Shown: piece by piece, positions 4,502 through 31,625 of the stretch
Position numbering within the stretch: position 1 is the first letter of the stretch
How the letters are laid out: each line of letters opens with the position of its first letter
Virus record (IMG/VR): IMGVR_UViG_3300042991_000318
Span: 1-38,744 of that record
Reading direction: 5' to 3' (one strand)
Source: a virus
DNA length: 38,744 bases
Notes under the pieces: model-generated
Told to the model about the DNA's origin: nothing
What the model saw: the letters and a program-made list of their open reading frames with translations, nothing else
Databases searched by the model: none
Position numbers and translations under genes: made by a program

Positions 4502-4684
4502 ATGAAAAGAAAAGTTGAAAAAAAGAAAATAACATTTTCAATATCATTAGATCCAGAAATATTAAATATTATAAATGAATCTATCGGTAATAGATCAAAA
4601 TTTATACAAAATTGTATAATTGAAGAAATATCTAAAAGTTCAGAAATTAAAGATGAACTCATAAAAAAGAAAATTATTTTATGA
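4502..4684 (+). CDS. RHH regulator translationally coupled to endonuclease, cassette A (60 aa)
   Basis: The strand KITFSISLD is followed by helices around EILNIINESI and NRSKFIQNCIIEEI, a ribbon-helix-helix fold. The protein ends in KKKIIL, and its TGA stop overlaps the ATG of the endonuclease (ATGA, 4681-4684), so the two are translationally coupled. By hand alignment about 44 of 60 residues match the cassette C counterpart at 31622-31804; the cassette B counterpart at 18069-18248 is more distant but ends the same way. The gene is probably an autoregulator that limits nuclease production, by analogy with RHH antitoxins (inference). Confidence 0.82.
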   Translation: MKRKVEKKKITFSISLDPEILNIINESIGNRSKFIQNCIIEEISKSSEIKDELIKKKIIL

Positions 4685-5955
4685 AAAATTATTTAGAAAA
4701 ATGTAAACTTATTCATAATAATAAGTATGATTATTCATTATCAGATTTTAAAGGTTTACATTATAAGATAAAAATAATTTGTCCAGATCATGGCCCGTTT
4801 GAACAAAGATTGGATAGTCATTTAAAAGGTTCTGGTTGTAAACAATGTTATATAAAAAAAATAAAATTTGCTAAATATATAAATTCAACTGATTATCACA
4901 GTAACTTATGTAATCTAATTCATGAAAATAAATATGACTATTCATTATCAGAATTTAAAGGATTACACTATAAAATAAAAATAATTTGTTCAAAACATGG
5001 TATCTTTGAACAGAGATTAGATCATCACAAAAATGGTAAAATGTGTCCAAAATGTAAATATGATGAACGCAAATTAACTACACAAGAATTTATTAATAAA
5101 TCTATAGAAAAGCATGGTGATAAATATGATTATAGTTTATCTGAATATATAAATCATATGACAAAAGTTAAAATAATTTGTCCTACACATGGTATTTTTG
5201 AACAAACACCAAATAATCATTTATCTGGTAGCAAAAATGAAGGTTGTTGCGCAAAATGTAATAAAAGATATATTTATTCTAAAGATGAAATTATAGAAAA
5301 AGCTAATATAAAGCATAATAATAAATATGATTATTCTTTAATAGATTATAAAAATACTAAAGATAAAGTTAAAATAATTTGTCCAATACATGGTATTTTT
5401 GAACAAAATTTATCCCAACATTTATATAAAACAGGTTGTTCTAAATGTGATAAACCCATATTAAACACAGAACATTTTATAGAATTATCAAAAGCAAAAC
5501 ACAATAAATATGATTATTCTTTAATAGATTTTAAAAGTACTAAATATAAAGTTAAAATAATTTGTTCTATACATGGTATTTTTTTTCAATATCCATTACA
5601 TCACATTCAAGGGTGTGGTTGCCCAAAATGCTCAACAAGAAGTAAAGGAGAAGAAATAATTGAAAAATTTTTAATTGAAAATAATATAGATTATAACACA
5701 CAGCAAACATTTAAAAACTGTAAATATAAAAATTTATTAAGATTTGATTTTTATTTAATAAAATATAATATATGTATTGAATATGATGGTGAATTACATC
5801 ATAAAAGTATAAAATATTTTGGTGGAGACAATACATTAAAAGAAAATATAATTAAAGATAACATTAAAAATAATTATTGTGAGAACAATAATATTAAATT
5901 ATTAAGAATAAAATATACCGATAATATTATTGATAAATTAAAAACAATCATATAA
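4681..5955 (+). CDS. EDxHD/Vsr-like homing endonuclease with five zinc-ribbon repeats (424 aa)
   Basis: Residues 1-318 hold five repeats of about 60-70 residues built on NKYDYSL..., KIIC..HG.FEQ, and a terminal CxxC (DUF723-like DNA-binding repeats). The C-terminal 105 residues form a Vsr-like nuclease: SKGEE with Glu324/325, RFDFYL with Asp356, IEYDGELHH with Glu367, Asp369 and His373, then FGG and NNIKLLRI. This matches the EDxHD homing endonuclease family known from phages and from fractured split-intein genes. All the core residues are present, so it is probably active. It overlaps the upstream RHH gene by four bases. A three-repeat relative lies at 34004-34870. Confidence 0.85.
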   Translation: MKNYLEKCKLIHNNKYDYSLSDFKGLHYKIKIICPDHGPFEQRLDSHLKGSGCKQCYIKKIKFAKYINSTDYHSNLCNLIHENKYDYSLSEFKGLHYKIKIICSKHGIFEQRLDHHKNGKMCPKCKYDERKLTTQEFINKSIEKHGDKYDYSLSEYINHMTKVKIICPTHGIFEQTPNNHLSGSKNEGCCAKCNKRYIYSKDEIIEKANIKHNNKYDYSLIDYKNTKDKVKIICPIHGIFEQNLSQHLYKTGCSKCDKPILNTEHFIELSKAKHNKYDYSLIDFKSTKYKVKIICSIHGIFFQYPLHHIQGCGCPKCSTRSKGEEIIEKFLIENNIDYNTQQTFKNCKYKNLLRFDFYLIKYNICIEYDGELHHKSIKYFGGDNTLKENIIKDNIKNNYCENNNIKLLRIKYTDNIIDKLKTII

Positions 5956-5986: not shown

Positions 5987-7624
5987 ATGATTGAAGTTAA
6001 CGGTAAAAAAATTTTTTATGATTTAAAATATAAACCAAATGAGCAACAAATAGAAAGTCTAAATTTTATAAAAAATAGTATAACAACAGGTAAGAGATTT
6101 ATAATGAATAATTTAAGTACTGGAGTTGGAAAATCATACTTAATTATAATGTTTGCCAACTGGTACAGAAATTATATAAACACTAATGATGATGTTAAAA
6201 TAGACGTTCTTACTAATTCCAAGGTACTTCAAGAGCAATACCTAAAAGATTTTTCCTTTATTAAAAATTATAAAGGACAATCAAATTATTATTGTTCAAC
6301 ATATAATTGTGATTGCAAAACTGCTAGGGAATTATGTAAAATAATGAAAAATAAATGTAATTCATGTCCATATGATAATGCAAAAAATGCTTGGATAGAA
6401 AGTGAAATAGGATTAACAAATTTCCATTTATTTGACACGTTATCGTTATTTCAAAAAGATATATTAAAAAGAAGAAATGGCAATGTACTTGTAATTGATG
6501 AGTGTCAAACATTTGAACAAATTTTTTCATCTTATTTAAGTTCAAAATTAAGTGCTAAAAGTTTAAAAAAGTGTGGATTTAACATGAAAGAAATTGAAAC
6601 ACTTGATGATAGATTTATTTCAAAAATAAAATATTTGGATAAATATTTAGAATTTCTTGAAAGAAAATTAATACCCATGCTTGAAGAAAAACTTGAAAAA
6701 TTTGAAAAAGATATAAGCACATCAAAATCTAAAAATAAAATTGAAACTGTTAAATTTATACAAAACATTGATAATAAATTATTATCTTTTAAGCATCTAT
6801 TTGAATCTTATAAAAAAGAGCCAAATAATGTCATATTAGATATTAATGTAAATAAAAATGAAAAAATGTTTTCTGGTATCGAACTTATAACAGAACATGT
6901 TTTTGTAAACGAATATTTAAATGAATATATTTTTAGTCAATATGATCATATAATTTTTATGTCAGCAACAATTTTAGATAAACATTTATTTAGTTTTATT
7001 AATGGATTAGATGATAAACTATCAAGTTATTATGACATACCATCCCCGTTTTCTTTAAAAAATAGACAAATATATTATTTAAAAATTGGTAAAATGAATT
7101 ATTATAATAAAATTGAAACGTTTCAAAAACAAATACCTTGGATAAATAAAATTTTAGAAAAGTATAAAAATAGTAAAGGTATTATACACACAACAAATTA
7201 TGAAATTACCGAATGGATAAAAGATAATATTCAAAATGACAGATTATTGTTTCATGAAACAGACGATAGAAATGATATACTTGAAAAACATTTAACAAGT
7301 ATAGAACCGACAGTTTTAGTCAGTCCATCAATGATGGAAGGTATTTCTTTAGATGATGATTTAGCTAGATTTCAAATATTATTAAAAATAAATTATCCAA
7401 ATATATCATCAAATAAAATAAAAGCCAGACAAAAATTAAAACCAGAATGGTATTCTTGGATGGCGTGTGTAAATACTATACAATCTACTGGTAGAGGTGT
7501 TAGAAATGATAATGATTTTTGTGATACATTTATTCTTGATTCAAACTTTTCGGATTTATTGAAATATAATTCACATATGATACCAAAATATTTTACGGAC
7601 GCAATAAAAACATTAAAAATATAA
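5987..7624 (+). CDS. XPD/DinG-like superfamily 2 DNA helicase (545 aa)
   Basis: Walker A is STGVGKS (residues 44-50), motif II is VIDECQ (169-174), motif III is SAT (in FMSATILDKH) and motif VI is QSTGRGVR (499-506). Between motifs I and II lies a Cys-rich segment (Cys103, 108, 110, 117, 124 and 127) where XPD/DinG helicases carry a 4Fe-4S cluster. These enzymes unwind DNA 5' to 3' in repair and in resolving R-loops. DECQ in place of DEAH is a variation, but the Asp-Glu pair is kept. A long charged helical insert (about 180-290) follows motif II. It leads a run of small genes that may share its transcript. Confidence 0.8.
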   Translation: MIEVNGKKIFYDLKYKPNEQQIESLNFIKNSITTGKRFIMNNLSTGVGKSYLIIMFANWYRNYINTNDDVKIDVLTNSKVLQEQYLKDFSFIKNYKGQSNYYCSTYNCDCKTARELCKIMKNKCNSCPYDNAKNAWIESEIGLTNFHLFDTLSLFQKDILKRRNGNVLVIDECQTFEQIFSSYLSSKLSAKSLKKCGFNMKEIETLDDRFISKIKYLDKYLEFLERKLIPMLEEKLEKFEKDISTSKSKNKIETVKFIQNIDNKLLSFKHLFESYKKEPNNVILDINVNKNEKMFSGIELITEHVFVNEYLNEYIFSQYDHIIFMSATILDKHLFSFINGLDDKLSSYYDIPSPFSLKNRQIYYLKIGKMNYYNKIETFQKQIPWINKILEKYKNSKGIIHTTNYEITEWIKDNIQNDRLLFHETDDRNDILEKHLTSIEPTVLVSPSMMEGISLDDDLARFQILLKINYPNISSNKIKARQKLKPEWYSWMACVNTIQSTGRGVRNDNDFCDTFILDSNFSDLLKYNSHMIPKYFTDAIKTLKI

Positions 7625-10611: not shown

Positions 10612-12405
10612 ATGATAAAAAAATCAATAGAGGAAAGATATAAAAAATTAACACCAAAGGAACACATATTAAAAAGACCTGGAATGTATATTGGAAATGT
10701 ATATACAGAACCAACTAAAATGTATGTTTTTGAAGATATTAATGAAATAAAAAGTAATAAATTTACAAATAAAACCGTAGAATATAATGCTGGATTTATA
10801 AAATTATATGATGAAGTATTAACTAATGCTTCTGATCATTATATTAGAACCAATCAAGTTAAATATATTAAAATAACAGTTGATAAGAATCATGTATCTA
10901 TTGAAAACGATGGTCCTGGTATACCAATTCAAATGCACAAAGATCATAAAATGTATGTACCAGAATTAATATTTGGCAATCTTATGTCAGGTGAAAATTT
11001 TGATGAAAATGATCAAAGAATGGTTGGTGGTCTCAACGGTCTTGGTACTAAATTAACTAACATATTTTCAAAAAAATTTATAGTAGAAACTTCTGATGGT
11101 AAAAAGAAATATACTCAAGAGTTTACAAATAATATGGAAGATAAAACTAAACCAAAAATAGTAAAATCTTCAAAAAATTATACTAAAATAACTTATTATC
11201 CAGATTTTGAAAAATTTGAATTAACTGAGATAACAGATGAAATTCAATCAATTTTTATAAAAAGAGCTATTGATATTGCTGCATATAGTCCTGGTGTTAA
11301 AGTATATTATAATGATATTCTTATTCCAATTAAAACATTTAAGGATTATATGAAAATGTTTATTGATGATAACGAAGAATTTTTTTATGAAAAAATAAAC
11401 GACAATTGGGAGATCGGCATATCACGTTCACCTAATGATATGTTTCAACAAGTATCTATGGTTAATGGAATTTCAACTCATGTTGGCGGTACACACGTTA
11501 ATTACATTTCTAATCAAATTGTTAGACTATTAGAATCTAAAATTAAAATCGCAACTGTCAAACATACAATGATTAAAAATCATCTTTTTTTGTTTTTAAA
11601 TTGTAGAATACCAAATCCATCATTTGAAACACAAACGAAAGAAAATTTAACAACAAAAATGATTTCTACTATCATTAAAGATGTTGAAGTTTCTGATGCT
11701 TTTATAAAAAAATTAATGACATCACAAATTAAAAATGATATTGTTAATTTTGCATCACTTAAAGAATTTCAAGAAGCAAAAAAATCCACACAAAACGGTC
11801 AAAAAGTTAAAATTAGAATTGCTAAATTAGATGATGCTAATAAAGCGGGTAAATCTCCTGATAATATGAGATGTCATTTATTTTTAACAGAGGGTGATTC
11901 GGCAGCAGCAACAGCTAAAAGAGGATTTTCAGTAACAGGTAATGATTACTTTGGTTTATTTCCACTTAAAGGTAAACCTTTAAATGTTAGAGATGTGACA
12001 TTACAAAAAATGAGAGAAGATGCTGAAATTTCAAATATAGTATCTGCTTTAGGTCTTGAATTTGGTAAAAAATATACATCAACAAGAACATTAAGATATG
12101 GAAAATTAGTTGTTATGAGTGATGCTGATTGCATTGATGGGGATACTTTTGTTTTAACTAAAAGAGGTTATGTAGAAATAAAAGATATTGATTACGAAGA
12201 TGAAGTTTTAACACATAATAATCATTGGAAAAAGGTAATAAAAATCATAGAAAAAAACAAAACAAATTGTATAAAATTAACTATAAATGGCATAGAATAT
12301 TGTTTTGGTAAAAATCATCAACTACCAATAGTAAGGAACGGTGAAGTTTTAATGATTTGTGCTGGAGATATATTAAAAACTGATAAAGTTTTAAAAAAAA
12401 AATAA
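10612..12405 (+). CDS. topoisomerase II N-terminal half (ATPase + TOPRIM) fused to N-intein (597 aa)
   Basis: Residues 1-506 are the GHKL ATPase, transducer and most of the TOPRIM domain of a type IIA topoisomerase: N-box EVLTNASD (Glu68, Asn72), DGPGIP (100-105), GGLNGLGTKLTN (139-150), TEGDSA with Glu427, PLKGKPLNV, and VVMSDAD with Asp504 and Asp506. From Cys507 the sequence becomes an intein N-fragment of 91 residues. The chain therefore stops in the middle of the DxDxD metal motif and cannot be a complete enzyme. The missing half is at 14181-16082. The likeness is to T4 gp39 and eukaryotic topoisomerase II rather than host gyrase. A TATATAAA element lies about 40 bases upstream. Confidence 0.92.
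   Translation: MIKKSIEERYKKLTPKEHILKRPGMYIGNVYTEPTKMYVFEDINEIKSNKFTNKTVEYNAGFIKLYDEVLTNASDHYIRTNQVKYIKITVDKNHVSIENDGPGIPIQMHKDHKMYVPELIFGNLMSGENFDENDQRMVGGLNGLGTKLTNIFSKKFIVETSDGKKKYTQEFTNNMEDKTKPKIVKSSKNYTKITYYPDFEKFELTEITDEIQSIFIKRAIDIAAYSPGVKVYYNDILIPIKTFKDYMKMFIDDNEEFFYEKINDNWEIGISRSPNDMFQQVSMVNGISTHVGGTHVNYISNQIVRLLESKIKIATVKHTMIKNHLFLFLNCRIPNPSFETQTKENLTTKMISTIIKDVEVSDAFIKKLMTSQIKNDIVNFASLKEFQEAKKSTQNGQKVKIRIAKLDDANKAGKSPDNMRCHLFLTEGDSAAATAKRGFSVTGNDYFGLFPLKGKPLNVRDVTLQKMREDAEISNIVSALGLEFGKKYTSTRTLRYGKLVVMSDADCIDGDTFVLTKRGYVEIKDIDYEDEVLTHNNHWKKVIKIIEKNKTNCIKLTINGIEYCFGKNHQLPIVRNGEVLMICAGDILKTDKVLKKK
12130..12402 (+). other. split intein, N-fragment
   Basis: Block A is CIDGDTFVLTKRGYVEIKDI, the standard start of a Hint domain, with catalytic Cys1. 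Block B is GIEYCFGKNHQLPIV, with the conserved His but Gly where Thr of TxxH usually stands. The fragment is 91 residues long, ends in a Lys-rich tail (KVLKKK) and stops, the normal break point for naturally split inteins. Confidence 0.92.
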
Positions 12406-12411
12406 ATAATT

Positions 12412-12666
12412 ATGAGGTATATTATAGCACAAAGAAAAAATGATAATGATGTTATTACACATGTTAAAATTGATTTAAACGAAGAAAAATTACCAAATAC
12501 TGATGCTACTAAACAACAAGTAATTGAAAGTATTAGATTAGGAAATAAATATAAAACAAAAATTAACAATTTGACATCTGATGTAAATGTTATTGATAAT
12601 AAATATCTTAGGAGTGATGGTAATAATACCAAATCTGACAATTTAGGTAATTTACCATCATTTTAA
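12412..12666 (+). CDS. DUF3892-like protein (84 aa)
   Basis: The 84-residue protein starts MRYIIAQRKNDNDVITHVKI and ends with NKYLRSDGNNTKSDNLGNLP, a pattern I associate with DUF3892, a small family of unknown function common in Bacteroidetes and phages. It begins six bases after the stop of the N-intein gene and so shares its transcript. It lies inside the gap between the topoisomerase halves and may be cargo brought in with the endonuclease. Its 3' end overlaps the end of the convergent endonuclease gene by four bases. Confidence 0.6.
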   Translation: MRYIIAQRKNDNDVITHVKIDLNEEKLPNTDATKQQVIESIRLGNKYKTKINNLTSDVNVIDNKYLRSDGNNTKSDNLGNLPSF

Positions 12667-13490
12667 AAAGTATTTCTGGAATTTTTCTTTGAATTATTAG
12701 TTCTTTTTGTAATACAAAGATTTTCAATAGATCCAATCACAATTGGATCTATTTCATTTTTAAATCCATATAAAACTGATATTTTATGATCTATTGTTGG
12801 AAACAATCTATCCTTTGATTCTAAGCACAAATTTTCTTTAATATCATCATAATCATAATAATCTAATCCATTCCATTCAGTATATAACTTTTTTTTATGT
12901 TTTCTTGTTTCAATACTTACTAATTTTCTATATTCTTGATATGTACTATAATTTTCATAATCAACCATAATACCTCTTAAAACTTTTGTTTTATTTGTTT
13001 TTTTAATAGTTTCATCTATTTTTGACATAAATTTAGACAATATAGTATCGTTTTGATATGAATATTTTACACCATATCTTTCTATCATAGTGTCATAAGA
13101 TTTTAGTTTAATAATTTCATTAGACTGACAAGATTTATTGCCATATCTTTCTATATTTGTTTTTTCTTGTTTTGTTTTAATGTCTGGATGCTGACTACTA
13201 ACACAACCATAATTATTTTTAAAAGTATTCATCATTTTATCAACAGCGCATTTTCTACTACAACAATATTCTTCAGTATTTAATTTAGTATTTTTAACAT
13301 ATTTATAATAACCTAATTCTTTTTCATATTTACATATATCACATTTAACTCTTATTTTTATATGACTGAATTTTGGTAAATCTTCAATTAAAATTTTTAC
13401 GGTTTTTTGACTAATATCATAACCTTTACTAACAAGATGAGATTTATTTTTATTACTCACATTAAATAATATTTCTGTGTCTAAAATCAT
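12663..13490 (-). CDS. HNH-type homing endonuclease in the split-intein gap (275 aa)
   Basis: The N-terminal zinc module has Cys50, Cys53, Cys76/77 and Cys81. Repeats of the type ERYGVKYSYQN (about 95-150) follow, the same DNA-binding module as in the endonucleases at 20713 and 30783. The C-terminus is HNH-like: PTIDHKISVLYGF (Asp234, His235), ENLCI (Asn257), then RTNNSKKN (Asn265/266). It is transcribed against the topoisomerase genes. Its position between the intein halves matches known fractured genes, where a free-standing endonuclease cuts uninterrupted alleles to spread the split intein. The family usually seen there is Vsr-like, so an HNH enzyme is a variation. Confidence 0.8.
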   Translation of the reverse strand: MILDTEILFNVSNKNKSHLVSKGYDISQKTVKILIEDLPKFSHIKIRVKCDICKYEKELGYYKYVKNTKLNTEEYCCSRKCAVDKMMNTFKNNYGCVSSQHPDIKTKQEKTNIERYGNKSCQSNEIIKLKSYDTMIERYGVKYSYQNDTILSKFMSKIDETIKKTNKTKVLRGIMVDYENYSTYQEYRKLVSIETRKHKKKLYTEWNGLDYYDYDDIKENLCLESKDRLFPTIDHKISVLYGFKNEIDPIVIGSIENLCITKRTNNSKKNSRNTF

Positions 13491-13625
13491 AAAATAATTT
13501 CTTTTTTAATAACACACGTTTTTAATATACTTATATATTAATATATTTTGATTCATTTTAGTATATTATACTGTTAAATTAATGTTAATTTTAATTTTTA
13601 AATATATAATTAAATAAAAATGTAT

Positions 13626-13633
13626 TATATTTG
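13626..13633 (+). promoter_or_regulatory. Bacteroidetes -7 promoter element (TATATTTG)
   Basis: TATATTTG fits TAnnTTTG and lies 23 bases before the ATG at 13657. The -33 region is A/T-rich without a clear TTG, so this is a partial match. Confidence 0.45.
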
Positions 13634-13656
13634 AACAAAATATAAAATTAAAAATT

Positions 13657-14043
13657 ATGAAAAAATTATTATTACTATTAACTATTCTGTTTTATTTTAA
13701 TGTAAATTCTCAAACAATAGAAGAAAAAAAACGCACAGTTGACATGTTAGTAAATGATATTGTTGAAATCACAGATGGTTATATTAAAGTAAGCAAAGTT
13801 GAAAAAGATAATTATATTGTTATATCAATATTACCAAATTTTTACGATGAAGAATTACTTATAGTGACTATAAATACTTATTTAAAAAAATACAGTAATA
13901 TAACCACTGCGGCATGGAAAAGGGATGAAGATTATAAATGGCTATATAAGTTAATAATAATAAAAGACCAACCATATACAATTATTTATATTGAAAAATC
14001 ACATTTTTTAATGGTTAGTACATCAATAAATAAGATAAAGTGA
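13657..14043 (+). CDS. secreted hypothetical protein (128 aa)
   Basis: MKKLLLLLTILFYFNVNSQT is a typical flavobacterial signal peptide, probably cleaved before or after the Ser-Gln. The mature part (about 108 residues) alternates strands and helices, with no family recognised. The gene has its own host-type promoter element and lies within the topoisomerase gap, after the endonuclease and before the C-intein gene. It seems unrelated to splicing and is probably cargo or a host-modifying protein (inference). Confidence 0.7.
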   Translation: MKKLLLLLTILFYFNVNSQTIEEKKRTVDMLVNDIVEITDGYIKVSKVEKDNYIVISILPNFYDEELLIVTINTYLKKYSNITTAAWKRDEDYKWLYKLIIIKDQPYTIIYIEKSHFLMVSTSINKIK

Positions 14044-14093
14044 TATTCTATTTTTTTTAAACCATTCAATCTTCTTTTTATATATAAAAATAA

Positions 14094-14118
14094 TGAGACA
14101 ATATATAAATAAGTCTCA
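14094..14118 (+). promoter_or_regulatory. inverted repeat around a TATAAATA promoter-like box
   Basis: TGAGAC (14094-14099) and GTCTCA (14113-14118) form a 6-bp inverted repeat enclosing AATATATAAATAA. TATAAATA is the T4-type late promoter sequence. It lies about 65 bases before the C-intein gene, suggesting that the second topoisomerase half has its own, possibly regulated, promoter. Confidence 0.4.
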
Positions 14119-14128
14119 ATGCTGCACG

Positions 14129-14155
14129 TTCAATATTGGATAACCACATATTGAA
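14129..14155 (+). promoter_or_regulatory. 8-bp hairpin in the leader of the C-intein gene
   Basis: TTCAATAT (14129-14136) and ATATTGAA (14148-14155) pair perfectly around an 11-base loop, 25 bases before the ATG at 14181. It may be an RNA leader structure or an operator. No poly-T follows directly, so a terminator is less likely. Confidence 0.4.
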
Positions 14156-14180
14156 TTTTTATAAAAATAAATGAATAAGG

Positions 14181-14330
14181 ATGCAAATAAATCTTAATGA
14201 TTATGATGTTTTAGATATTGATAATATTACAACTGAATTGAAAAATACAACAATGTATGATATTGAAGTTGAAGATGATAACACATTTTTTATATCTAAA
14301 AACAAAACAGATAATATTTTAGTTCATAAT
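14181..14330 (+). other. split intein, C-fragment
   Basis: These 50 codons end in block F (MYDIEVEDDNTFFIS) and block G (NILVHN), with the penultimate His and terminal Asn needed for Asn cyclisation. The next residue is Cys (codon 14331-14333), the +1 nucleophile. The His usual in block F is replaced (DDNTF rather than a ..HNF type). The extein resumes as CDGSHIKGL. Confidence 0.92.
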
Positions 14331-16082
14331 TGTGATGGCTCACATATAAAAGGCTTAATTATAAATCTAATAGATACTTATTGGCCAGAATTATTAGAAA
14401 TGGATTTTATTTATGAATTTATTACACCTATTGTTAAAATTGAAAAAGGCACAAAAATTAAATATTTTTATAGAATTCAAGATTATCAAAAATGGAAGGA
14501 AAATCCAAAACCTGGACATTTCATAAAATGGATAAAAGGACTTGGTACAATTGAACCAAAAGAATCAAAATTATTTTTTAAAGATATATCAAAACATTTA
14601 ATTAGATTTAATGCATCTGATATAAAAGCAGAACGAAATTTAATTGATTTGGCATTTAAGAAAAAAAGAGCAGATGATAGAAAAAATTGGTTACTTAACT
14701 ATACACCTGGTATTGAATTAGATAAATTTAAAATTAAACAAACATATAAATCATTTTTTGATAATGAATTTATTGAATATAGTATGTCAGATAATATAAG
14801 ATCAATACCTTCAATGGTAGATGGTTTGAAACCATCACAAAGAAAAATTCTCTACACTTTATTTAAAAGAAAATTTAAGAATGAAGTTAAAGTTGAATTA
14901 TTAATGGGTTCTATTTTAGAATTATCTGCTTATCATCATGGACCAAAATCGTTAGAAACAACTATAGTTGGTATGGCACAAAATTTTGTTGGATCCAATA
15001 ATATAAATTTATTAAAACCAAAAGGAGAGTATGGTACAAGATCTAAAGGTGGATCTGATGCATCAGCAAGTAGATACATATTTACTAACATAGAAGATAT
15101 AACAAGAAATATTTTTCAACAGGAAGATGATGAAATATTAGAATATTTAACTGATGATGGTTACCAAGTAGAACCAAAATACTATGCACCAATAATACCA
15201 ATGGTATTAGTTAATGGCTCTGATGGTATTGGTACAGGTTGGAGTAGTTATGTACCACAATTTAATCCCACTGATATTATTACATATATTGAAAATAAAT
15301 TAAAAGAAGTAAAAAAACAAATAAAATTAACACCTTGGTTTAAAGGTTTCAAAGGTGAAATTTTAGAAGATTTAAATAATAGTAGATACATTTCGAGAGG
15401 TATATTCAAAAAACTACCTAAAAATAAGTTAAATATTTTAGAATTACCTATTTATACTTGGAATGATAATTATTATAAATTTCTTGATAAATTAATTGAT
15501 GATAAATATATTAAAGACTATGATAAATATTGTACAGATGAAAATGTAAATATTGTTATAACCATACCAGAAGAAACATTTGAAACGTTAACAGATGATA
15601 TAATTATTAATAAATTTAATCTTGAATCATATATTAATATGAATAATATGAATTTATTTGATGAAAATGGTAAAATTTATTATTATAAAGATCAATATGA
15701 TATTATAGATAAATTTATAAATTTAAGAATAAAATATTATGAATTAAGAAAACAGAATCTTTTAAATAAACTTGAAATTCAAAAGAAATATACTATAAAT
15801 AAAATGAAATTTATAAATTGTATATTAAAAAAGGAAATTATATTTGAAAATAAAACAAAAGATAATATCATAAAGCAAATAGAATTAAAAAGTATTGAAA
15901 AACACAATGAGAGTTATGATTATTTAATTAACACATCATTGATAAGTTTATCAAAAGAAAAACTATTAGAATTAAAAGAGCAATTTAATAAAATTAAAAT
16001 TGAAATTGAAAATATAAAATCTATAACTGAAATTCAAATGTGGTTAAATGAATTATCTCAATTAAAAAATAAATTAAAATAA
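14181..16082 (+). CDS. C-intein fused to topoisomerase II C-terminal half (TOPRIM end + DNA cleavage domain) (633 aa)
   Basis: After the 50-residue C-intein, the extein begins CDGSHIKGLIINLI, completing the TOPRIM motif left open at DAD in the gene at 10612. The breakage-reunion domain follows: MVDGLKPSQRKILYTLF, AYHHGP, GTRSKGGSDASASRYIFT with the catalytic Tyr299 next to Arg, and NGSDGIGTGWSS. The C-terminal part has coiled-coil helices. Spliced, the enzyme would be about 506 + 583 = 1089 residues, the size of single-chain viral or eukaryotic topoisomerase II, which joins the roles of T4 gp39 and gp52. ATG 14181 is chosen because the whole C-intein follows it. Confidence 0.92.
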   Translation: MQINLNDYDVLDIDNITTELKNTTMYDIEVEDDNTFFISKNKTDNILVHNCDGSHIKGLIINLIDTYWPELLEMDFIYEFITPIVKIEKGTKIKYFYRIQDYQKWKENPKPGHFIKWIKGLGTIEPKESKLFFKDISKHLIRFNASDIKAERNLIDLAFKKKRADDRKNWLLNYTPGIELDKFKIKQTYKSFFDNEFIEYSMSDNIRSIPSMVDGLKPSQRKILYTLFKRKFKNEVKVELLMGSILELSAYHHGPKSLETTIVGMAQNFVGSNNINLLKPKGEYGTRSKGGSDASASRYIFTNIEDITRNIFQQEDDEILEYLTDDGYQVEPKYYAPIIPMVLVNGSDGIGTGWSSYVPQFNPTDIITYIENKLKEVKKQIKLTPWFKGFKGEILEDLNNSRYISRGIFKKLPKNKLNILELPIYTWNDNYYKFLDKLIDDKYIKDYDKYCTDENVNIVITIPEETFETLTDDIIINKFNLESYINMNNMNLFDENGKIYYYKDQYDIIDKFINLRIKYYELRKQNLLNKLEIQKKYTINKMKFINCILKKEIIFENKTKDNIIKQIELKSIEKHNESYDYLINTSLISLSKEKLLELKEQFNKIKIEIENIKSITEIQMWLNELSQLKNKLK

Positions 16083-18068: not shown

Positions 18069-18248
18069 ATGAGAACACCGAAGAAAAATAAAAAAATCAC
18101 AATTTCAATTTCATTAGATGTTAATGTTTTTAATCTAATTAATAACTTTTCAAACAAATCAAAATTTTTAGAAAATTGTGCTATTGAAGAACTATGTAAA
18201 GATGTAGAATTCAAAAATGAACTAAAAAATAAAAAAATTATATTATGA
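18069..18248 (+). CDS. RHH regulator coupled to endonuclease, cassette B (59 aa)
   Basis: The strand KITISISLD and a helix pattern ending SKFLENCAIEELCKD mark an RHH protein related to those at 4502-4684 and 31622-31804. It ends with the same NKKIIL and overlaps the GIY-YIG gene by ATGA (18245-18248). It has 59 codons. The conservation of the coupling with a wholly different nuclease is the notable point. Confidence 0.8.
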   Translation: MRTPKKNKKITISISLDVNVFNLINNFSNKSKFLENCAIEELCKDVEFKNELKNKKIIL

Positions 18249-18982
18249 AACTAAAATGGACACATGAAAAATGTAGAGAAGAAGCTTTAAAATATAACAC
18301 TAAAATAGATTTTAAAAATAATTGTAAATCTGCTTATAGGTCAGCATTAAAAAATAAATGGAAAGATGAAATTTGTTCACACATGATAAACGTTGGGCAT
18401 AAATATAAAAGATGTATATATGCATTTGAATTTTCAAATAATTATGTTTATGTTGGGTTAACATACAATGCAAATAAAAGAAAAAATGAACATTTAATAG
18501 ATAAAAATAGTCAAGTATATAAATATATCACACTAACAAAAATAGAACCAATTTTTTATAAACTCACAGACTATATAGATGTAGAGGAAGCTAAAATAAA
18601 AGAAGAAGAATTTATAAAAAGATATAAAAAAGAAAATTGGAACATATTAAATAAAGCAAAGTCTGGTGGATTAGGAACTGGTTCAATTTTTTATAGTAGA
18701 GAAAAATGCTTAGAATTAGCATTAAAATACACTAAAGCTTCTGAATTTGCTAAAAACAACTCATCTGCTTATTCATCTGCACAAAAACATAAATGGTTAG
18801 ATGAGATATATTCACATATGGAAAATATAAATCATTCACCAGGATATTGGACAAAAGAAAATTGTCAAATAGAAGCACTAAAATATAAAACTCGAACTGA
18901 ATATGCTAAAAATAATATGTCAGCATATAATAAGTCTATAAAAGAAAAATGGATAGATGATATTTGTAAACATATGAATTAA
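18245..18982 (+). CDS. GIY-YIG homing endonuclease flanked by DNA-binding repeats, cassette B (245 aa)
   Basis: The GIY-YIG catalytic domain lies in the middle: CIYAFEF (57-63), VYVGLTY (68-74), a downstream Arg in NKRKNEH (79), the Glu-rich helix AKIKEEEF, and NILNKAKSGG. Three copies of a 44-residue module (CREEALKY..., KNN.SAY..A.K.KW.DEI.SHM) sit at about 3-46, 149-192 and 201-244 and probably bind DNA. A C-terminal array with a central nuclease is a compact homing endonuclease design. Its last four bases overlap the end of the convergent gene at 18979. Confidence 0.82.
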   Translation: MKLKWTHEKCREEALKYNTKIDFKNNCKSAYRSALKNKWKDEICSHMINVGHKYKRCIYAFEFSNNYVYVGLTYNANKRKNEHLIDKNSQVYKYITLTKIEPIFYKLTDYIDVEEAKIKEEEFIKRYKKENWNILNKAKSGGLGTGSIFYSREKCLELALKYTKASEFAKNNSSAYSSAQKHKWLDEIYSHMENINHSPGYWTKENCQIEALKYKTRTEYAKNNMSAYNKSIKEKWIDDICKHMN

Positions 18983-20712: not shown

Positions 20713-21588
20713 TTATATTTTAATTATTTTTTCAAATTCAGAATAATCTTTATCTAATATCATTATGTAATTGTGTATTTTTTTTGAATATTCTTCTTTT
20801 GCTTTACATTGTTCTTTATGTACATCATACCAATAGCATGATTTTATTTCAACTACCAAATAATAATCAGGTAGATAAAAATCAGAATGATATATCTTTT
20901 TATCATTTAAATAATAATATTCTATAGATAAACCATTTTCTATTTTAATTTTATCTTTATATTTTAATACAAAATCCAATTCATAACCACCTTGGCGTGA
21001 TAATTCATCTACATAAGTTAATTTAAATCCATTTTTTAAATTTTTATTAAAGAAGTCTTTATTTTGTGATGGATAATCAAATCCATAATTCATTAAATTT
21101 GTTATACACATTTTTGACCTTATTATATGTGATTGAGATGGATATTCTACACCATGCTTTTTTAAATTTGTTTTTTTAATTTTATCTTTAATAATATCAG
21201 ACTGAAATGGATTTTTAACACCATAACGTTTTAAATTTGTTTTTTCTGTTTTTTGCTTTATTTTATTATTTTGTTGTGGATTTTCAACACCATACTTACC
21301 AATATTTGTATCTTTAATCTTATCTTTCACAACATCAATTTGAAAAACATTATCAACATCATATTTTTTTTGAATAGCAATTTTTCTCTTTTTATTTATA
21401 CATTCTTTATTATTACAATAAAATTTTTCAGTATTATTGTTTGTTGATTTATTATATGATTGATATTTAACATATTTTTCATTACCACAATTATCACACT
21501 TAACTTCAATTTTTTTGTGGCTATTTATTGACAAATCTTCTATTTTAATCATTTTTTTAAAAATCATAATTTCTTTTGTTAATAACAT
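20713..21588 (-). CDS. PD-(D/E)XK homing-type endonuclease with zinc and KYGVxNPxQ repeats (291 aa)
   Basis: A zinc module (CDNCG, then YCNNKEC) is followed by four or five copies of a 30-residue repeat with core KYGVENPQQN. The C-terminal nuclease has GGYELDF, DFYLPDYYLVVEIKS (the D...ExK core) and a final strand YIMILDKDYSEF. It is close in design to the cassette C nuclease (30783-31625) and shares its DNA-binding part with the HNH enzyme at 12663. No RHH gene is attached. It diverges from the glycosyltransferase at 21688. A TTTTTTAATATATA promoter-like motif lies at 21622-21635. Confidence 0.8.
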   Translation of the reverse strand: MLLTKEIMIFKKMIKIEDLSINSHKKIEVKCDNCGNEKYVKYQSYNKSTNNNTEKFYCNNKECINKKRKIAIQKKYDVDNVFQIDVVKDKIKDTNIGKYGVENPQQNNKIKQKTEKTNLKRYGVKNPFQSDIIKDKIKKTNLKKHGVEYPSQSHIIRSKMCITNLMNYGFDYPSQNKDFFNKNLKNGFKLTYVDELSRQGGYELDFVLKYKDKIKIENGLSIEYYYLNDKKIYHSDFYLPDYYLVVEIKSCYWYDVHKEQCKAKEEYSKKIHNYIMILDKDYSEFEKIIKI

Positions 21589-29458: not shown

Positions 29459-30793
29459 ATGACTCAAATAATTAAATTAAACGAACAACCTGACAATCTT
29501 ATCAACACATTAAAGGATAAAGAATTAATTGTATATGAAGATGTACAAGGCTCACAAATATTTGTAAGATGGAATGGATCAAAATTTGTAATAAAACCAA
29601 AATCAATAAGTAGTATAGAATTAAATTTTGTAGATTTAGCTATACAAAAATTTTACAATCAAGTTTTTCAGTATTTACACACATTACCTGATTATATTAC
29701 TAATCTATTATCAACTAATTGGTGGTTTTGTTTTGAGTATTTTCCTGATAATCAACCAGCACATATTGAATATGCAAAACTACCTAAAAATAACCTTATA
29801 TTAACTTGCATTGTCAAAGGAACAAGATATAAATATAATTATAATGAAATTATAGAATATGCAAAATTGTTTAATGTTGATCATTTACCTATTATATTTA
29901 GAGGTAAATTAAATGAAAAACAATTAGAAATAATTAATTTATTTTTACACACATCAGAAGAAGATTTAGAATATGTTTTTGGTGAAAATAACTTTGCTTA
30001 TTTCTTTTACAAAATATTAAATCCAAAAATTGAAAATTCATTTCTAATGGACGACTTTAATGATAATATGGAGAAAATAATAATAAGAATTAGTGGCAAC
30101 GATGAATATTCATTTGAAATTTTAAATCCATATTATGAAAAAATGAAATTGGATAACAAAACTGAATATTTAGAAACATATTCATTAATATTATTGAACT
30201 TTTTAGAATTTTTGCAATTAATAAACTATGATAAACTAAAATTAAAAGAAATAACTAAAGATGAATTATATATTGAATTAATATCAACAGTTTTTAATGA
30301 ATATATTGATAATATTAAGAAAGATTTAAAAAACTGGAATTTATCTATTCCATCCTTTTTCACAAATGATAAATTTAGAATCAACACATTTTTATTAAAA
30401 AATAATAATACTATTGATTTAATAAAATCGGACACTAAAATTGAATATATTTTCAAATTAGTATTAAGCTCATTTAATAAGAAAAAGAAAAAGCCAATTG
30501 GTATATTTAATGAAAAAACAACAGAATTGTTTAATAAAGAGGTGAATAAAATATCAGATTTTATAGAACAAGTATTAAAAATAAACAGAGAATATTTATT
30601 AAGAAATAATGATTTATTAAATTTTAAAGATTATTTTAATGTTAATTATAATACAGATTCTCAAAATATGATATATCCCGATGTGGATCAAATATTAGAT
30701 GAAATACCAGGTGAAGAAAAGAAAAAGAAGCCAACTACACTTAAAAAAGGTGGAGTATCAGAATATGAAGAAATAAAAAAACCTATAAAATAG
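29459..30793 (+). CDS. possible nucleotidyltransferase-fold (RNA ligase-like) protein (444 aa)
   Basis: The N-terminal half resembles the RNA ligase/nucleotidyltransferase fold: ELIVYEDVQGSQIFVRW sits where motif I (KxDGS) would be, and WWFCFEYFP...HIEYAKLPKNNLIL resembles motifs III/IIIa (GEY..., YDRLPKN). However, Asp stands where the nucleophilic Lys of motif I should be, so if the likeness is real the enzyme may be inactive or use another Lys. The C-terminal half is helical, ending in a Lys-rich tail (EEKKKKPTTLKKGG). A TATAAATA-containing motif lies at 29418-29434. The fold assignment is tentative. Confidence 0.4.
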   Translation: MTQIIKLNEQPDNLINTLKDKELIVYEDVQGSQIFVRWNGSKFVIKPKSISSIELNFVDLAIQKFYNQVFQYLHTLPDYITNLLSTNWWFCFEYFPDNQPAHIEYAKLPKNNLILTCIVKGTRYKYNYNEIIEYAKLFNVDHLPIIFRGKLNEKQLEIINLFLHTSEEDLEYVFGENNFAYFFYKILNPKIENSFLMDDFNDNMEKIIIRISGNDEYSFEILNPYYEKMKLDNKTEYLETYSLILLNFLEFLQLINYDKLKLKEITKDELYIELISTVFNEYIDNIKKDLKNWNLSIPSFFTNDKFRINTFLLKNNNTIDLIKSDTKIEYIFKLVLSSFNKKKKKPIGIFNEKTTELFNKEVNKISDFIEQVLKINREYLLRNNDLLNFKDYFNVNYNTDSQNMIYPDVDQILDEIPGEEKKKKPTTLKKGGVSEYEEIKKPIK

Positions 30794-31625
30794 ATATAAA
30801 ATTTGAATAATCTTTATTTATAATAAAAATAAAATTAAAACCACCATTTATAGCGGCGTTCTTTTTAGCTTCATTTTGTTCCTTTTCACACTCATACGTA
30901 TAATTACTTTTAATTTCTACTATTAAGTTATAATCTGGTAAATAATAATCAGGAAAATATTTTTTATTACTATTATTAAAAATATAATCAATAGATTTAG
31001 CATTCTCAATTAATATTTTATTATGAAAATTTTTAATAAAATCCAATTCGTATGTTCCTCTATATAAATATCCTTTATATTCTTTTAACTTGTGTGCTGA
31101 TTTTTGAACTTTTTGAAATATCTCATCGTTTTGTAATGGATTTTCAACACCATAATTTTTTAAACATGTTTCTATTTTTTTATTTTTTATTTCTTCGTTT
31201 TGAGATGGGTTTTCAACACCATATTTTTCTAAATTTGTTTGTTTTATTTTTTTCTTTGTATCATCACACATCAAATTTGTTATAAAACCATATTTTTCTA
31301 AATATACTTTTTCTCTTTTTTTTAAAACATGTTTATTTTGTAATGGTGAATTACCACCATATCTATTTAAATTTGTTTTATTTGTTTTAATTCTACAACA
31401 TTTATTGCAATAAATTATATCATTTTTTAATAAATTTCTATACATTGTATATTTTTCAACACAACAAATATCACATTGATATTTAACAATAGTATGTGAC
31501 GAACATGATAAATCATTAACATCAATTTCAATCTTATCACCAACACTACCATTATATCCTAATTTTTTATATTTTATAATGTTTTTTAAATTTAAATTAA
31601 TTTCAACCTTTTCCGTTAATATCAT
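30783..31625 (-). CDS. PD-(D/E)XK homing-type endonuclease, cassette C (280 aa)
   Basis: A zinc module (CDICC, then YCNKCC) and repeats with core KYGVENPSQN (about 85-170) form the DNA-binding part. The nuclease core is TYELDF (Glu193), PDYYLPDYNLIVEIKS (Asp231, Glu237, Lys239) and FIFIINKDYS. It is related to the enzyme at 20713-21588 and differs entirely from the nucleases of cassettes A and B. Its start overlaps the stop of the RHH gene (ATGA, 31622-31625). Its 3' end overlaps the convergent gene at 29459 by 11 bases, so the cassette is wedged tightly between neighbours. Confidence 0.8.
   Translation of the reverse strand: MILTEKVEINLNLKNIIKYKKLGYNGSVGDKIEIDVNDLSCSSHTIVKYQCDICCVEKYTMYRNLLKNDIIYCNKCCRIKTNKTNLNRYGGNSPLQNKHVLKKREKVYLEKYGFITNLMCDDTKKKIKQTNLEKYGVENPSQNEEIKNKKIETCLKNYGVENPLQNDEIFQKVQKSAHKLKEYKGYLYRGTYELDFIKNFHNKILIENAKSIDYIFNNSNKKYFPDYYLPDYNLIVEIKSNYTYECEKEQNEAKKNAAINGGFNFIFIINKDYSNFISIL

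What the first reader, a model, noticed from the sequence alone, without database searches (positions are those of the whole stretch)
10612..16082. Topoisomerase II fractured inside its catalytic motif and rejoined by a split intein, with an HNH homing endonuclease in the gap
Seen: the 5' gene stops after an intein N-fragment (Cys507 start, blocks A and B). The 3' gene begins with an intein C-fragment (blocks F and G, VHN then Cys). The extein junction DAD/CDGSHIKG rebuilds the TOPRIM DxDxD metal site exactly. Between them lie about 1.8 kb with a DUF3892 gene, an HNH endonuclease on the other strand and a secreted protein. Known: fractured genes with split inteins and free-standing endonucleases have been described, mostly with Vsr-like nucleases and other host proteins; in T4 the large topoisomerase subunit is broken (genes 39/60) by the mobA endonuclease. 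Here the similar break in the same enzyme class appears healed at the protein level. Inference: neither half can be a complete topoisomerase until trans-splicing, so splicing could gate its activity.
Basis: partly seen in the sequence, partly recalled or inferred. Interest (0 to 1): 0.92.

Follow-up and report, generated by a model that had tools for sequence, protein, structure and literature searches.

The report
Split intein in phage topoisomerase II
A phage DNA-untangling enzyme is encoded as two separate genes that meet in its metal-binding site and carry matching halves of a self-splicing element, so the two proteins are predicted to be stitched together after translation, with a mobile DNA-cutting gene parked in the gap.

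Summary
Confirmed. Topoisomerase II is split into a 597-aa and a 633-aa gene with intein halves (91 and 50 aa) that abut inside the TOPRIM DxDxD motif; the predicted spliced product is 1089 aa. A relative on a 154-kb contig carries the uninterrupted 1096-aa gene with a zero-gap junction. Ten contigs including the window carry an intein at this site. All 9 whose C side could be read have Cys at +1, against 2 of 55 intein-free junctions. The intein tree conflicts with the host-gene tree (AU p 0.004) and dN/dS in the window's subgroup is about 0.1-0.4: a mobile, constrained element. The gap holds an HNH-like nuclease in 3 contigs, other nucleases in 5, none in 1; one also holds an EcoRI-like restriction-modification pair. 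One intein-free allele keeps Cys+1 and a foreign tract beside the site, as if an intein had come and gone. The arrangement itself, a 'fractured gene', is published for phage PolB. Splicing as a regulatory gate is untested; the T4 39/60 break lies 15-19 residues upstream, without an intein.

The parts
10612..12129 (+). N-extein, 506 aa: ATPase, transducer and first part of TOPRIM, ending ..VVMSDAD
   Evidence: Pfam DNA_gyraseB 5.5e-20, HATPase_c 1.4e-8; phrog_543 residues 3-506, 6.4e-128; 84% identical to the first 510 aa of the uninterrupted L002 gene
12130..12405 (+). Intein N-fragment, 91 aa from Cys507, then stop
   Evidence: Hint_2 0.013, below cut-off; A4 profile to PDB split inteins gp41-1 2.6e-7 and AceL NrdHF-1 6.3e-7; Cys1 and His63 invariant in 8 of 8 rows and present in L162
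12412..12666 (+). DUF3892 protein, 84 aa, probably passenger
   Evidence: PF13031 2.1e-10
12663..13490 (-). HNH-like free-standing (homing-type) endonuclease, 275 aa, antisense to the topoisomerase; Cys50/53/77/81 zinc-binding-like set and C-terminal DHK..N..N..K motif
   Evidence: phrog_12131 homing endonuclease 1.8e-7, phrog_5104 1.8e-15; DUF7487 2.8e-7; invariant motif residues; AlphaFold2 model pLDDT 87, pTM 0.51; orthologs in two other gaps, L005 69% and L027 63%
13657..14043 (+). Small protein with signal-peptide-like start, 128 aa, no family, probably passenger
   Evidence: ORF; no Pfam, NCBIfam or PHROG match
14181..14330 (+). Intein C-fragment, 50 aa, own ATG, ending ..NILVHN
   Evidence: TIGR01443 intein_Cterm 9.5e-4, 19.3 bits over cut-off 15.6; His49 and Asn50 invariant in 7 of 7 rows
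14331..16082 (+). C-extein, 583 aa: Cys+1, rest of TOPRIM (DGSHIKG), TOPRIM_C and GyrA-like breakage-reunion domain
   Evidence: PF16898 1.5e-30, PF00521 1.1e-104; 76% identical to L002 with a zero-gap junction

Best explanation
The locus is a 'fractured gene': a fused (GyrB+GyrA-like) type IIA topoisomerase of a large phage was invaded inside its TOPRIM metal motif by a naturally split intein. The two genes are translated separately, the intein halves associate, and class-1 trans-splicing (Cys1, block-B His, His-Asn at the C end, Cys+1) removes both fragments and joins ..SDAD to CDGSHIKG.., giving a 1089-aa enzyme. The antisense HNH-like gene between the halves is a free-standing homing-type endonuclease that most probably cuts intein-free topoisomerase genes near the insertion site, so that repair copies the whole cassette (intein halves, nuclease and passengers) plus some flanking sequence into the recipient. 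Shown by computation: the split, the domain content, exact intein-free alleles, conserved splicing residues, purifying selection and horizontal movement. Inferred: that splicing happens, that the nuclease is active and targets this gene, and that the passengers are neutral.
For: Domain and intein matches on both halves. Uninterrupted allele L002, 1096 aa, 84%/76% identical, junction 6003|6004 with no gap or overlap. Same-site inteins in ten contigs including the window, at a conserved split point, their N-exteins 44-83% identical to the window's. Cys1 and the block-B His in all nine aligned N-fragments; HN then Cys in 8 of 8 aligned C-fragments plus the near-identical L022. Cys+1 in 9 of 9 intein alleles vs 2 of 55 free ones, Fisher 2e-9, or 8 of 8 vs 2 of 31 after collapsing identical flanks, 7e-7. 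Within window/L004/L005/L027: dN/dS of the N-fragment 0.20-0.28, C-fragment 0.08-0.42 (one of six pairs not computable); HNH of window, L005 and L027 0.19-0.26. Window and L027: inteins 68% and 72%, HNH 63%, but exteins 57% and 52%; L027's topoisomerase sits with intein-free LR756501 (82%) and L024 at 100/100. Window and L006: exteins 83%, intein 36%. Forcing the extein clade on the intein tree is rejected, AU p 0.0037. Full-length HNH copies in 19 records: 3 in gaps, 4 (two near-identical contigs, one with two stops) about 74-232 bp upstream of topoisomerase and antisense, 2 elsewhere.
Against: No splicing or cleavage was measured. The block-B Thr of the usual TxxH is Gly or Ser here, although His is invariant. 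The window itself shows no co-conversion footprint against L002 and L003 (7 of 59 unique changes in the 70 columns downstream; permutation of the maximum 15864/20000). The HNH label has no Pfam or NCBIfam support, and the PDB fold and sequence searches were empty. The HNH family's N-terminal module is common in these genomes (up to 15 matches in a 345-kb record), so nearness to topoisomerase holds only for full-length copies. The dN/dS values rest on strongly diverged synonymous sites; across all pairs of intein fragments they run up to 0.84.
Confidence: 0.87

Rival explanations
1. The two proteins assemble without splicing, like T4 gp39 and gp60, and the intein tails are dead leftovers.
For: T4 topoisomerase is encoded in pieces after a mobA insertion and works (PMC2988022 passages). 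No splicing assay exists for this locus.
Against: All splicing residues are kept across N-fragments down to 36% identity, dN/dS is below 1 in every computable pair, Cys+1 co-occurs with the intein in 9 of 9, and a nuclease-free allele (L028) still keeps both halves intact. Without excision a 91-aa and a 50-aa tail would sit in the metal site.
Confidence: 0.08
2. The break is an RNA-level or assembly artefact: a group I intron, frameshift or chimeric contig.
For: Introns and homing endonucleases often split genes of large phages (PMC12363816 passages).
Against: Rfam: 0 hits in the window. The fragments are in-frame intein sequence with their own stop and start, and the same arrangement is on nine other contigs.
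Confidence: 0.02
3. The HNH-like gene is a passenger unrelated to intein mobility, and the real mover is something else or is gone.
For: The same intein site holds other nucleases (CapR/treble-clef type in L004, phrog_22677 type in L018 and, by eye, L162, GIY-YIG-like in L021/L022) or none (L028). The intein nearest to the window's (L004, 78% N-fragment) has no HNH of this kind.
Against: HNH orthologs at 63-69% lie in three gaps in the same orientation, one of them together with a window-like intein in a distant topoisomerase (L027). Full-length relatives lie next to the 5' end of topoisomerase genes without an intein at this site in three further lineages.
Confidence: 0.2
4. Trans-splicing is a regulatory switch that times topoisomerase activity during infection.
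For: Neither half holds the whole DxDxD motif (sequence). Mycobacteriophage inteins also sit in the active site of a TOPRIM protein (PMC5050341 passages).
Against: Close relatives (L002, 84%/76%) do without it, presence and absence alternate on the tree, and two intein-free alleles keep Cys+1, which is what a mobile element looks like. No condition-sensing feature was seen or tested.
Confidence: 0.05

Closest known systems
Split intein with HNH endonuclease in PolB of Pseudomonas jumbo phage MIJ3 (PMC6892783; passages read)
   Same: Large phage, replication gene cut into two genes, intein N and C blocks on the two sides, HNH-family gene between.
   Different: Host gene is DNA polymerase B, and the residue after VHN is Ser. 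MIJ3's comparison, as far as the passages show, is with one mini-intein; here ten same-site alleles and intein-free ones are compared.
Fractured genes with split inteins and Vsr-like endonucleases (Dassa et al. 2009; not held; content recalled, seen only as a citation)
   Same: Same genomic architecture and, by PDB sequence match, the same broad group of split inteins (gp41-1; that gp41-1 belongs to that set is recalled).
   Different: Host gene here is topoisomerase II; the window's nuclease is HNH-like; the nuclease class changes between alleles at one site.
T4 genes 39/60 with mobA (PMC2988022 passages; record NC_000866)
   Same: Large topoisomerase subunit broken in TOPRIM, with an HNH homing endonuclease in the gap.
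   Different: Break 15-19 residues upstream, no intein match (best E 0.06), and the tail of gp39 that looked intein-like also lies in the uninterrupted gene of Aeromonas phage AS-yj.
TOPRIM-protein inteins of mycobacteriophages (PMC5050341 passages)
   Same: Intein at the TOPRIM active site.
   Different: A primase-type protein; the paper's main text has no 'split intein'.
Collaborative homing (PMC2988022 and PMC10448857 passages)
   Same: A free-standing nuclease next to or inside an element that lacks its own cutter.
   Different: Described there for introns; here a split intein, with topoisomerase-adjacent HNH relatives in phages lacking an intein at this site.

Membership tests
Fractured gene with natural split intein | Two separate ORFs, N-extein+intein N and intein C+C-extein, that together give one full extein | tested here: met
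   zero-gap match to the uninterrupted L002
Fractured gene with natural split intein | Endonuclease gene between the halves | tested here: met
   phrog_12131 homing-endonuclease match and invariant HNH-type motif; activity not tested
Fractured gene with natural split intein | Protein trans-splicing | not testable with these tools
   Needs co-expression; splicing residues conserved
Class 1 intein | Cys/Ser1, block-B His, C-terminal His-Asn, Cys/Ser/Thr+1 (definition recalled) | tested here: met
   Window C507, H569 (His63 of the fragment), HN49-50, C+1
Class 1 intein | Block-B TxxH threonine (typical, not essential; motif recalled) | tested here: not met
   Three residues before His is Gly or Ser in all nine aligned N-fragments
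HNH homing endonuclease | HNH beta-beta-alpha-metal motif | tested here: inconclusive
   Motif residues invariant in 12 homologs; strand-helix-strand-helix at 231-267 in a model of pTM 0.51; no Pfam/NCBIfam HNH hit, no PDB fold or sequence match
HNH homing endonuclease | Cuts the allele that lacks the element | not testable with these tools
   Only position and mobility evidence
Type IIA topoisomerase | GHKL ATPase, TOPRIM with EGD and DxDxD, GyrA-like domain | tested here: met
   Pfam and PHROG matches; EGDSA and DADCD in the exteins

The most novel reading that the evidence does not exclude
In this family of large phages the TOPRIM domain of topoisomerase II is a homing platform. A constrained split intein is the durable part. 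Its gap is a bay in which nucleases of different families replace one another (HNH-like, treble-clef/CapR type, phrog_22677 type, GIY-YIG-like, or none), and cargo such as an EcoRI-type restriction-modification pair can ride along. The HNH relatives that sit just upstream of topoisomerase genes without an intein at this site would be the free-standing partners predicted by collaborative homing. The full cycle is visible, including loss: an intein-free allele (L023) keeps the Cys+1 and a roughly 65-residue foreign tract just downstream of the site.
Probability: 0.5. Interest if true: 0.75.

Novelty: new variant of a known kind. Interest (0 to 1): 0.62.

Why it matters
It adds topoisomerase II, split exactly in its catalytic metal motif, to the genes predicted to be rebuilt by natural trans-splicing, and gives up to ten natural intein alleles and many intein-free ones at one residue. 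That makes the gain, nuclease exchange and loss of a split intein testable: which nuclease cuts which allele, whether collaborative homing created the cassette, and whether an R-M pair in the gap helps the element persist. The intein fragments (91 + 50 aa, Cys+1, related to the gp41-1 group) are also candidates for protein-ligation tools.

Tried and rejected
Fossil intein in T4: the last 43 residues of T4 gp39 looked Hint-like to me. An intein N-fragment HMM gave no significant match (best E 0.06 with filters off) and the same segment is inside the uninterrupted Aeromonas AS-yj gene, so I dropped it.

Xanthomonas phage XacN1 matched the query into the intein (residues 1-577), but its gene is an ordinary large subunit followed by a medium-subunit gene; the extended alignment was spurious.

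HNH fold by structure: AlphaFold2 model, Foldseek against PDB 0 of 35 matches at E 0.001 or better, profile search against PDB sequences nothing at 0.1 or better. No help.

Group I intron: Rfam 0 hits. Cellular origin of the fused enzyme: the genome-contig scan kept 80 of 113 loci, all at 24-29% identity, from bacterial and archaeal records; no prophage host was identified.

Co-conversion in the window itself: no signal. The permutation test there assumes even rates along the gene; of 14 scans three others were also extreme but elsewhere (L011 at +450, L026 at -301, L004 at -92..-22), so I rely on the sister pairs in the same columns (63/70 and 63/71 identical) rather than on the p-values. The L004-L005 and W-L005 pairs are also low in that tract (41/70 and 38/69); I did not pursue them.

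Rows dropped: in the +1 count, loci of one contig were collapsed by a hand-made list, 9 loci without the junction were set aside, and L129 was discarded as a misalignment at a T4-type break; the window was added by hand. The extein tree used 20 rows; near-duplicates L008, L020, L022, the later L162, and more distant topoisomerases were left out.
Full report
OBSERVATION. The window is a whole 38,744-base virus record, probably a fragment. Two plus-strand ORFs, 10612-12405 (597 aa) and 14181-16082 (633 aa), flank a 1775-bp gap. The first matches topoisomerase II large subunit from residue 3 to 506 and then stops matching (phrog_543, 6.4e-128); residue 507 is Cys and starts a 91-aa segment with a weak Hint_2 match (0.013). 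A profile of eight such segments finds solved split inteins first: gp41-1 (6qaz 2.6e-7, 6riz 1.4e-6) and AceL NrdHF-1 (6zgq 6.3e-7). The second ORF starts with 50 aa ending in NILVHN (TIGR01443 intein_Cterm, above cut-off), then CDGSHIKG, TOPRIM_C (1.5e-30) and the GyrA-like domain (1.1e-104). 506 + 583 = 1089 residues.

INTEIN-FREE ALLELES. L002 (a 154-kb contig) encodes one 1096-aa protein, 84% and 76% identical to the two exteins, and the blast pieces meet at 6003|6004 with neither gap nor overlap. L003, L007, L011 (LR756501, a 735-kb phage record), L019, L020, L023-L026 and L064 are also contiguous at this site. In 21 records searched with each half, the N half matched in 21 and the C half in 20 (the miss, G004, ends after the N-fragment). 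Each record had at most one C-half place and one N-half gene; G010 and G011 had two N-half pieces because of their second-site split. The 330-kb split-intein record G001 has no second copy.

OTHER SPLIT ALLELES. Ten contigs including the window carry the intein at this residue: window, L004, L005, L006 (contig ends after the N-fragment), L018, L021, L022 (near-identical to L021), L027, L028 and L162. The split point is conserved: most N-fragments end in a run like TDxxLxxK and C-fragments have their own start codon. The gap differs. HNH-like gene in the window, L005 and L027. A CapR/DUF4379 treble-clef nuclease in L004 (PF21817 5e-16, phrog_559 3e-75). A phrog_22677 protein in L018 (2.5e-8) and, by my reading of the sequence only, its like in L162. 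A phrog_20046 protein with a GIY-YIG-like motif in L021/L022 (the window's own phrog_20046 protein at 18245 has a sub-cut-off Pfam GIY-YIG match). In L028 no gene at all, 66 bp between stop and start. L027's gap also holds a D12-class methylase (PF02086 5.7e-17) and an EcoRI-family endonuclease (PF02963 5.3e-15, 55.6 bits over a cut-off of 22). The closest N-fragment to the window's (L004, 78%) has a different nuclease, which points to exchange.

SPLICING RESIDUES AND SELECTION. Cys1 and the block-B His are invariant in eight aligned N-fragments and present in L162; HN then Cys in seven of seven C-fragments, in L162 and in L022. At position +1 the intein alleles have Cys in 9 of 9 read; intein-free junctions have Cys in 2 of 55 (V, P, T, A, L, D otherwise), Fisher 2e-9; 8 of 8 against 2 of 31 after collapsing identical flanks. 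The two exceptions, L003 and L023, show that an uninterrupted gene with a DADCD motif exists in nature (in L003 the contig begins inside the gene). dN/dS among window, L004, L005 and L027: N-fragment 0.20-0.28, C-fragment 0.08-0.42 (five of six pairs; L005-L027 saturated); HNH of the three carriers 0.19-0.26. Other intein pairs are higher, up to 0.71 (N) and 0.84 (C).

MOBILITY. On the extein tree of 20 rows the window is sister to L006 (97/98), and L027 groups with intein-free L011 and L024 (100/100). But the inteins of window, L004, L005 and L027 form one group (100/100), and holding window, L004, L005 and L006 together on the intein tree is rejected (AU p 0.0037). L027 and the window share 68%/72% of intein and 63% of HNH but 57%/52% of extein; L006 and the window share 83% of extein but 36% of intein. 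So the intein moves between phages, and the HNH-bearing cassette probably did so at least once. The L027 changes relative to L011=L024 cluster at -4..+66 residues from the site (25 of 86, 0 of 20,000 shuffles); its sisters have 1 and 2 changes in the 70 columns downstream. L023, which has no intein but has Cys+1, shows the same at -7..+63 (31 of 129, 0 of 20,000; sisters 1 and 0). L023's changes there match L027 in 17 of 29 against 32 of 99 elsewhere (Fisher 0.016); the reverse count, 11 of 24 against 16 of 62, is not significant (0.12). The simplest reading is co-conversion at homing, followed in L023 by precise intein loss; adaptation of TOPRIM to Cys+1 is an alternative. The window, L003 and L021 show no such footprint.

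THE HNH GENE. With a four-sequence profile, 18 records plus the window were searched. Joining adjacent pieces by eye, full-length copies number nine: three in gaps (window, G001, G008), four upstream of the topoisomerase start and antisense to it (G010 and G011, near-identical contigs, about 230 bp; G019, 74 bp; G018, about 220 bp, broken by two stops), and two elsewhere (a second copy in G010 about 6 kb away, W01 about 50 kb away); G012/G013 hold a partial copy far away. Of the 42 loci from a wider scan, those near a topoisomerase were L085, L086, L092 and L093, all of contigs already counted; the remaining 38 had none within the fetched flanks. So the tie to topoisomerase holds for the nearest relatives only.

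SECOND SITE. L008/L009 carry a different split intein in the other TOPRIM motif (EGD|S), with a phrog_22677 protein in the gap. That is the same protein family as in L018, at another site of the same gene.

LITERATURE. Nine searches of the held library listed no paper that by title or abstract reports a split intein in a phage topoisomerase; the library lacks most subscription papers and Dassa 2009. MIJ3 PolB (PMC6892783, passages) is the clear precedent for a phage split intein with an HNH gene in the gap. PMC2988022 and PMC10448857 (passages) state the collaborative-homing and nuclease-turnover ideas. PMC5050341 (passages) reports inteins at a TOPRIM active site in mycobacteriophages. PMC3322345 and PMC12363816 (passages) report inteins and split genes in other large phages. 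PMC7162821 (term search) has neither 'intein' nor 'topoisomerase' in its text. Passages of PMC7765530, PMC7090010, PMC2814812, PMC4071816 and PMC12350094 added nothing on this locus.

VERDICT. The arrangement is a known kind. What goes beyond it is the host gene and site, the exchangeable nucleases with an R-M pair as cargo, and the traces of gain and loss.

Noticed in passing
L027 9272-11066: D12-class DNA methylase and EcoRI-family restriction enzyme lie inside the split-intein gap, so a selfish cassette carries a whole R-M pair.
   Followed up: partly
L009 7276-9121 (also L008): Second split intein at the TOPRIM EGD|S motif with a 170-aa N-fragment, nearly twice the length of the first site's, and a phrog_22677 protein in the gap.
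   Followed up: partly
L162 5310-7217: The spliced motif would read DADCFG: the third Asp of DxDxD is Phe, so this topoisomerase may have altered metal binding or be inactive.
   Followed up: no
L023 7500|7501: Intein-free allele with Cys+1 and a foreign-looking tract of about 65 residues downstream, the possible scar of a lost intein.
   Followed up: partly
window 4681-5955, 18245-18982, 20713-21588, 30783-31625: Four more nuclease-like genes (phrog_559 HNH endonuclease, GIY-YIG-like phrog_20046, two phrog_12131 homing endonucleases) in 38.7 kb.
   Followed up: no
window 10612-16082 and L002, L007, L011: These phages have a fused GyrB+GyrA-like topoisomerase II of about 1100 aa; other phages in the set keep two subunits.
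   Followed up: partly
L127 3778-5328: The C-terminal 43 residues of T4 gp39 look intein-like by eye but occur inside an uninterrupted relative.
   Followed up: yes
G001 64604-64801; G012 44331-44507; G015 54444-54734: Weak intein N-fragment matches in other genes of the same phages.
   Followed up: no
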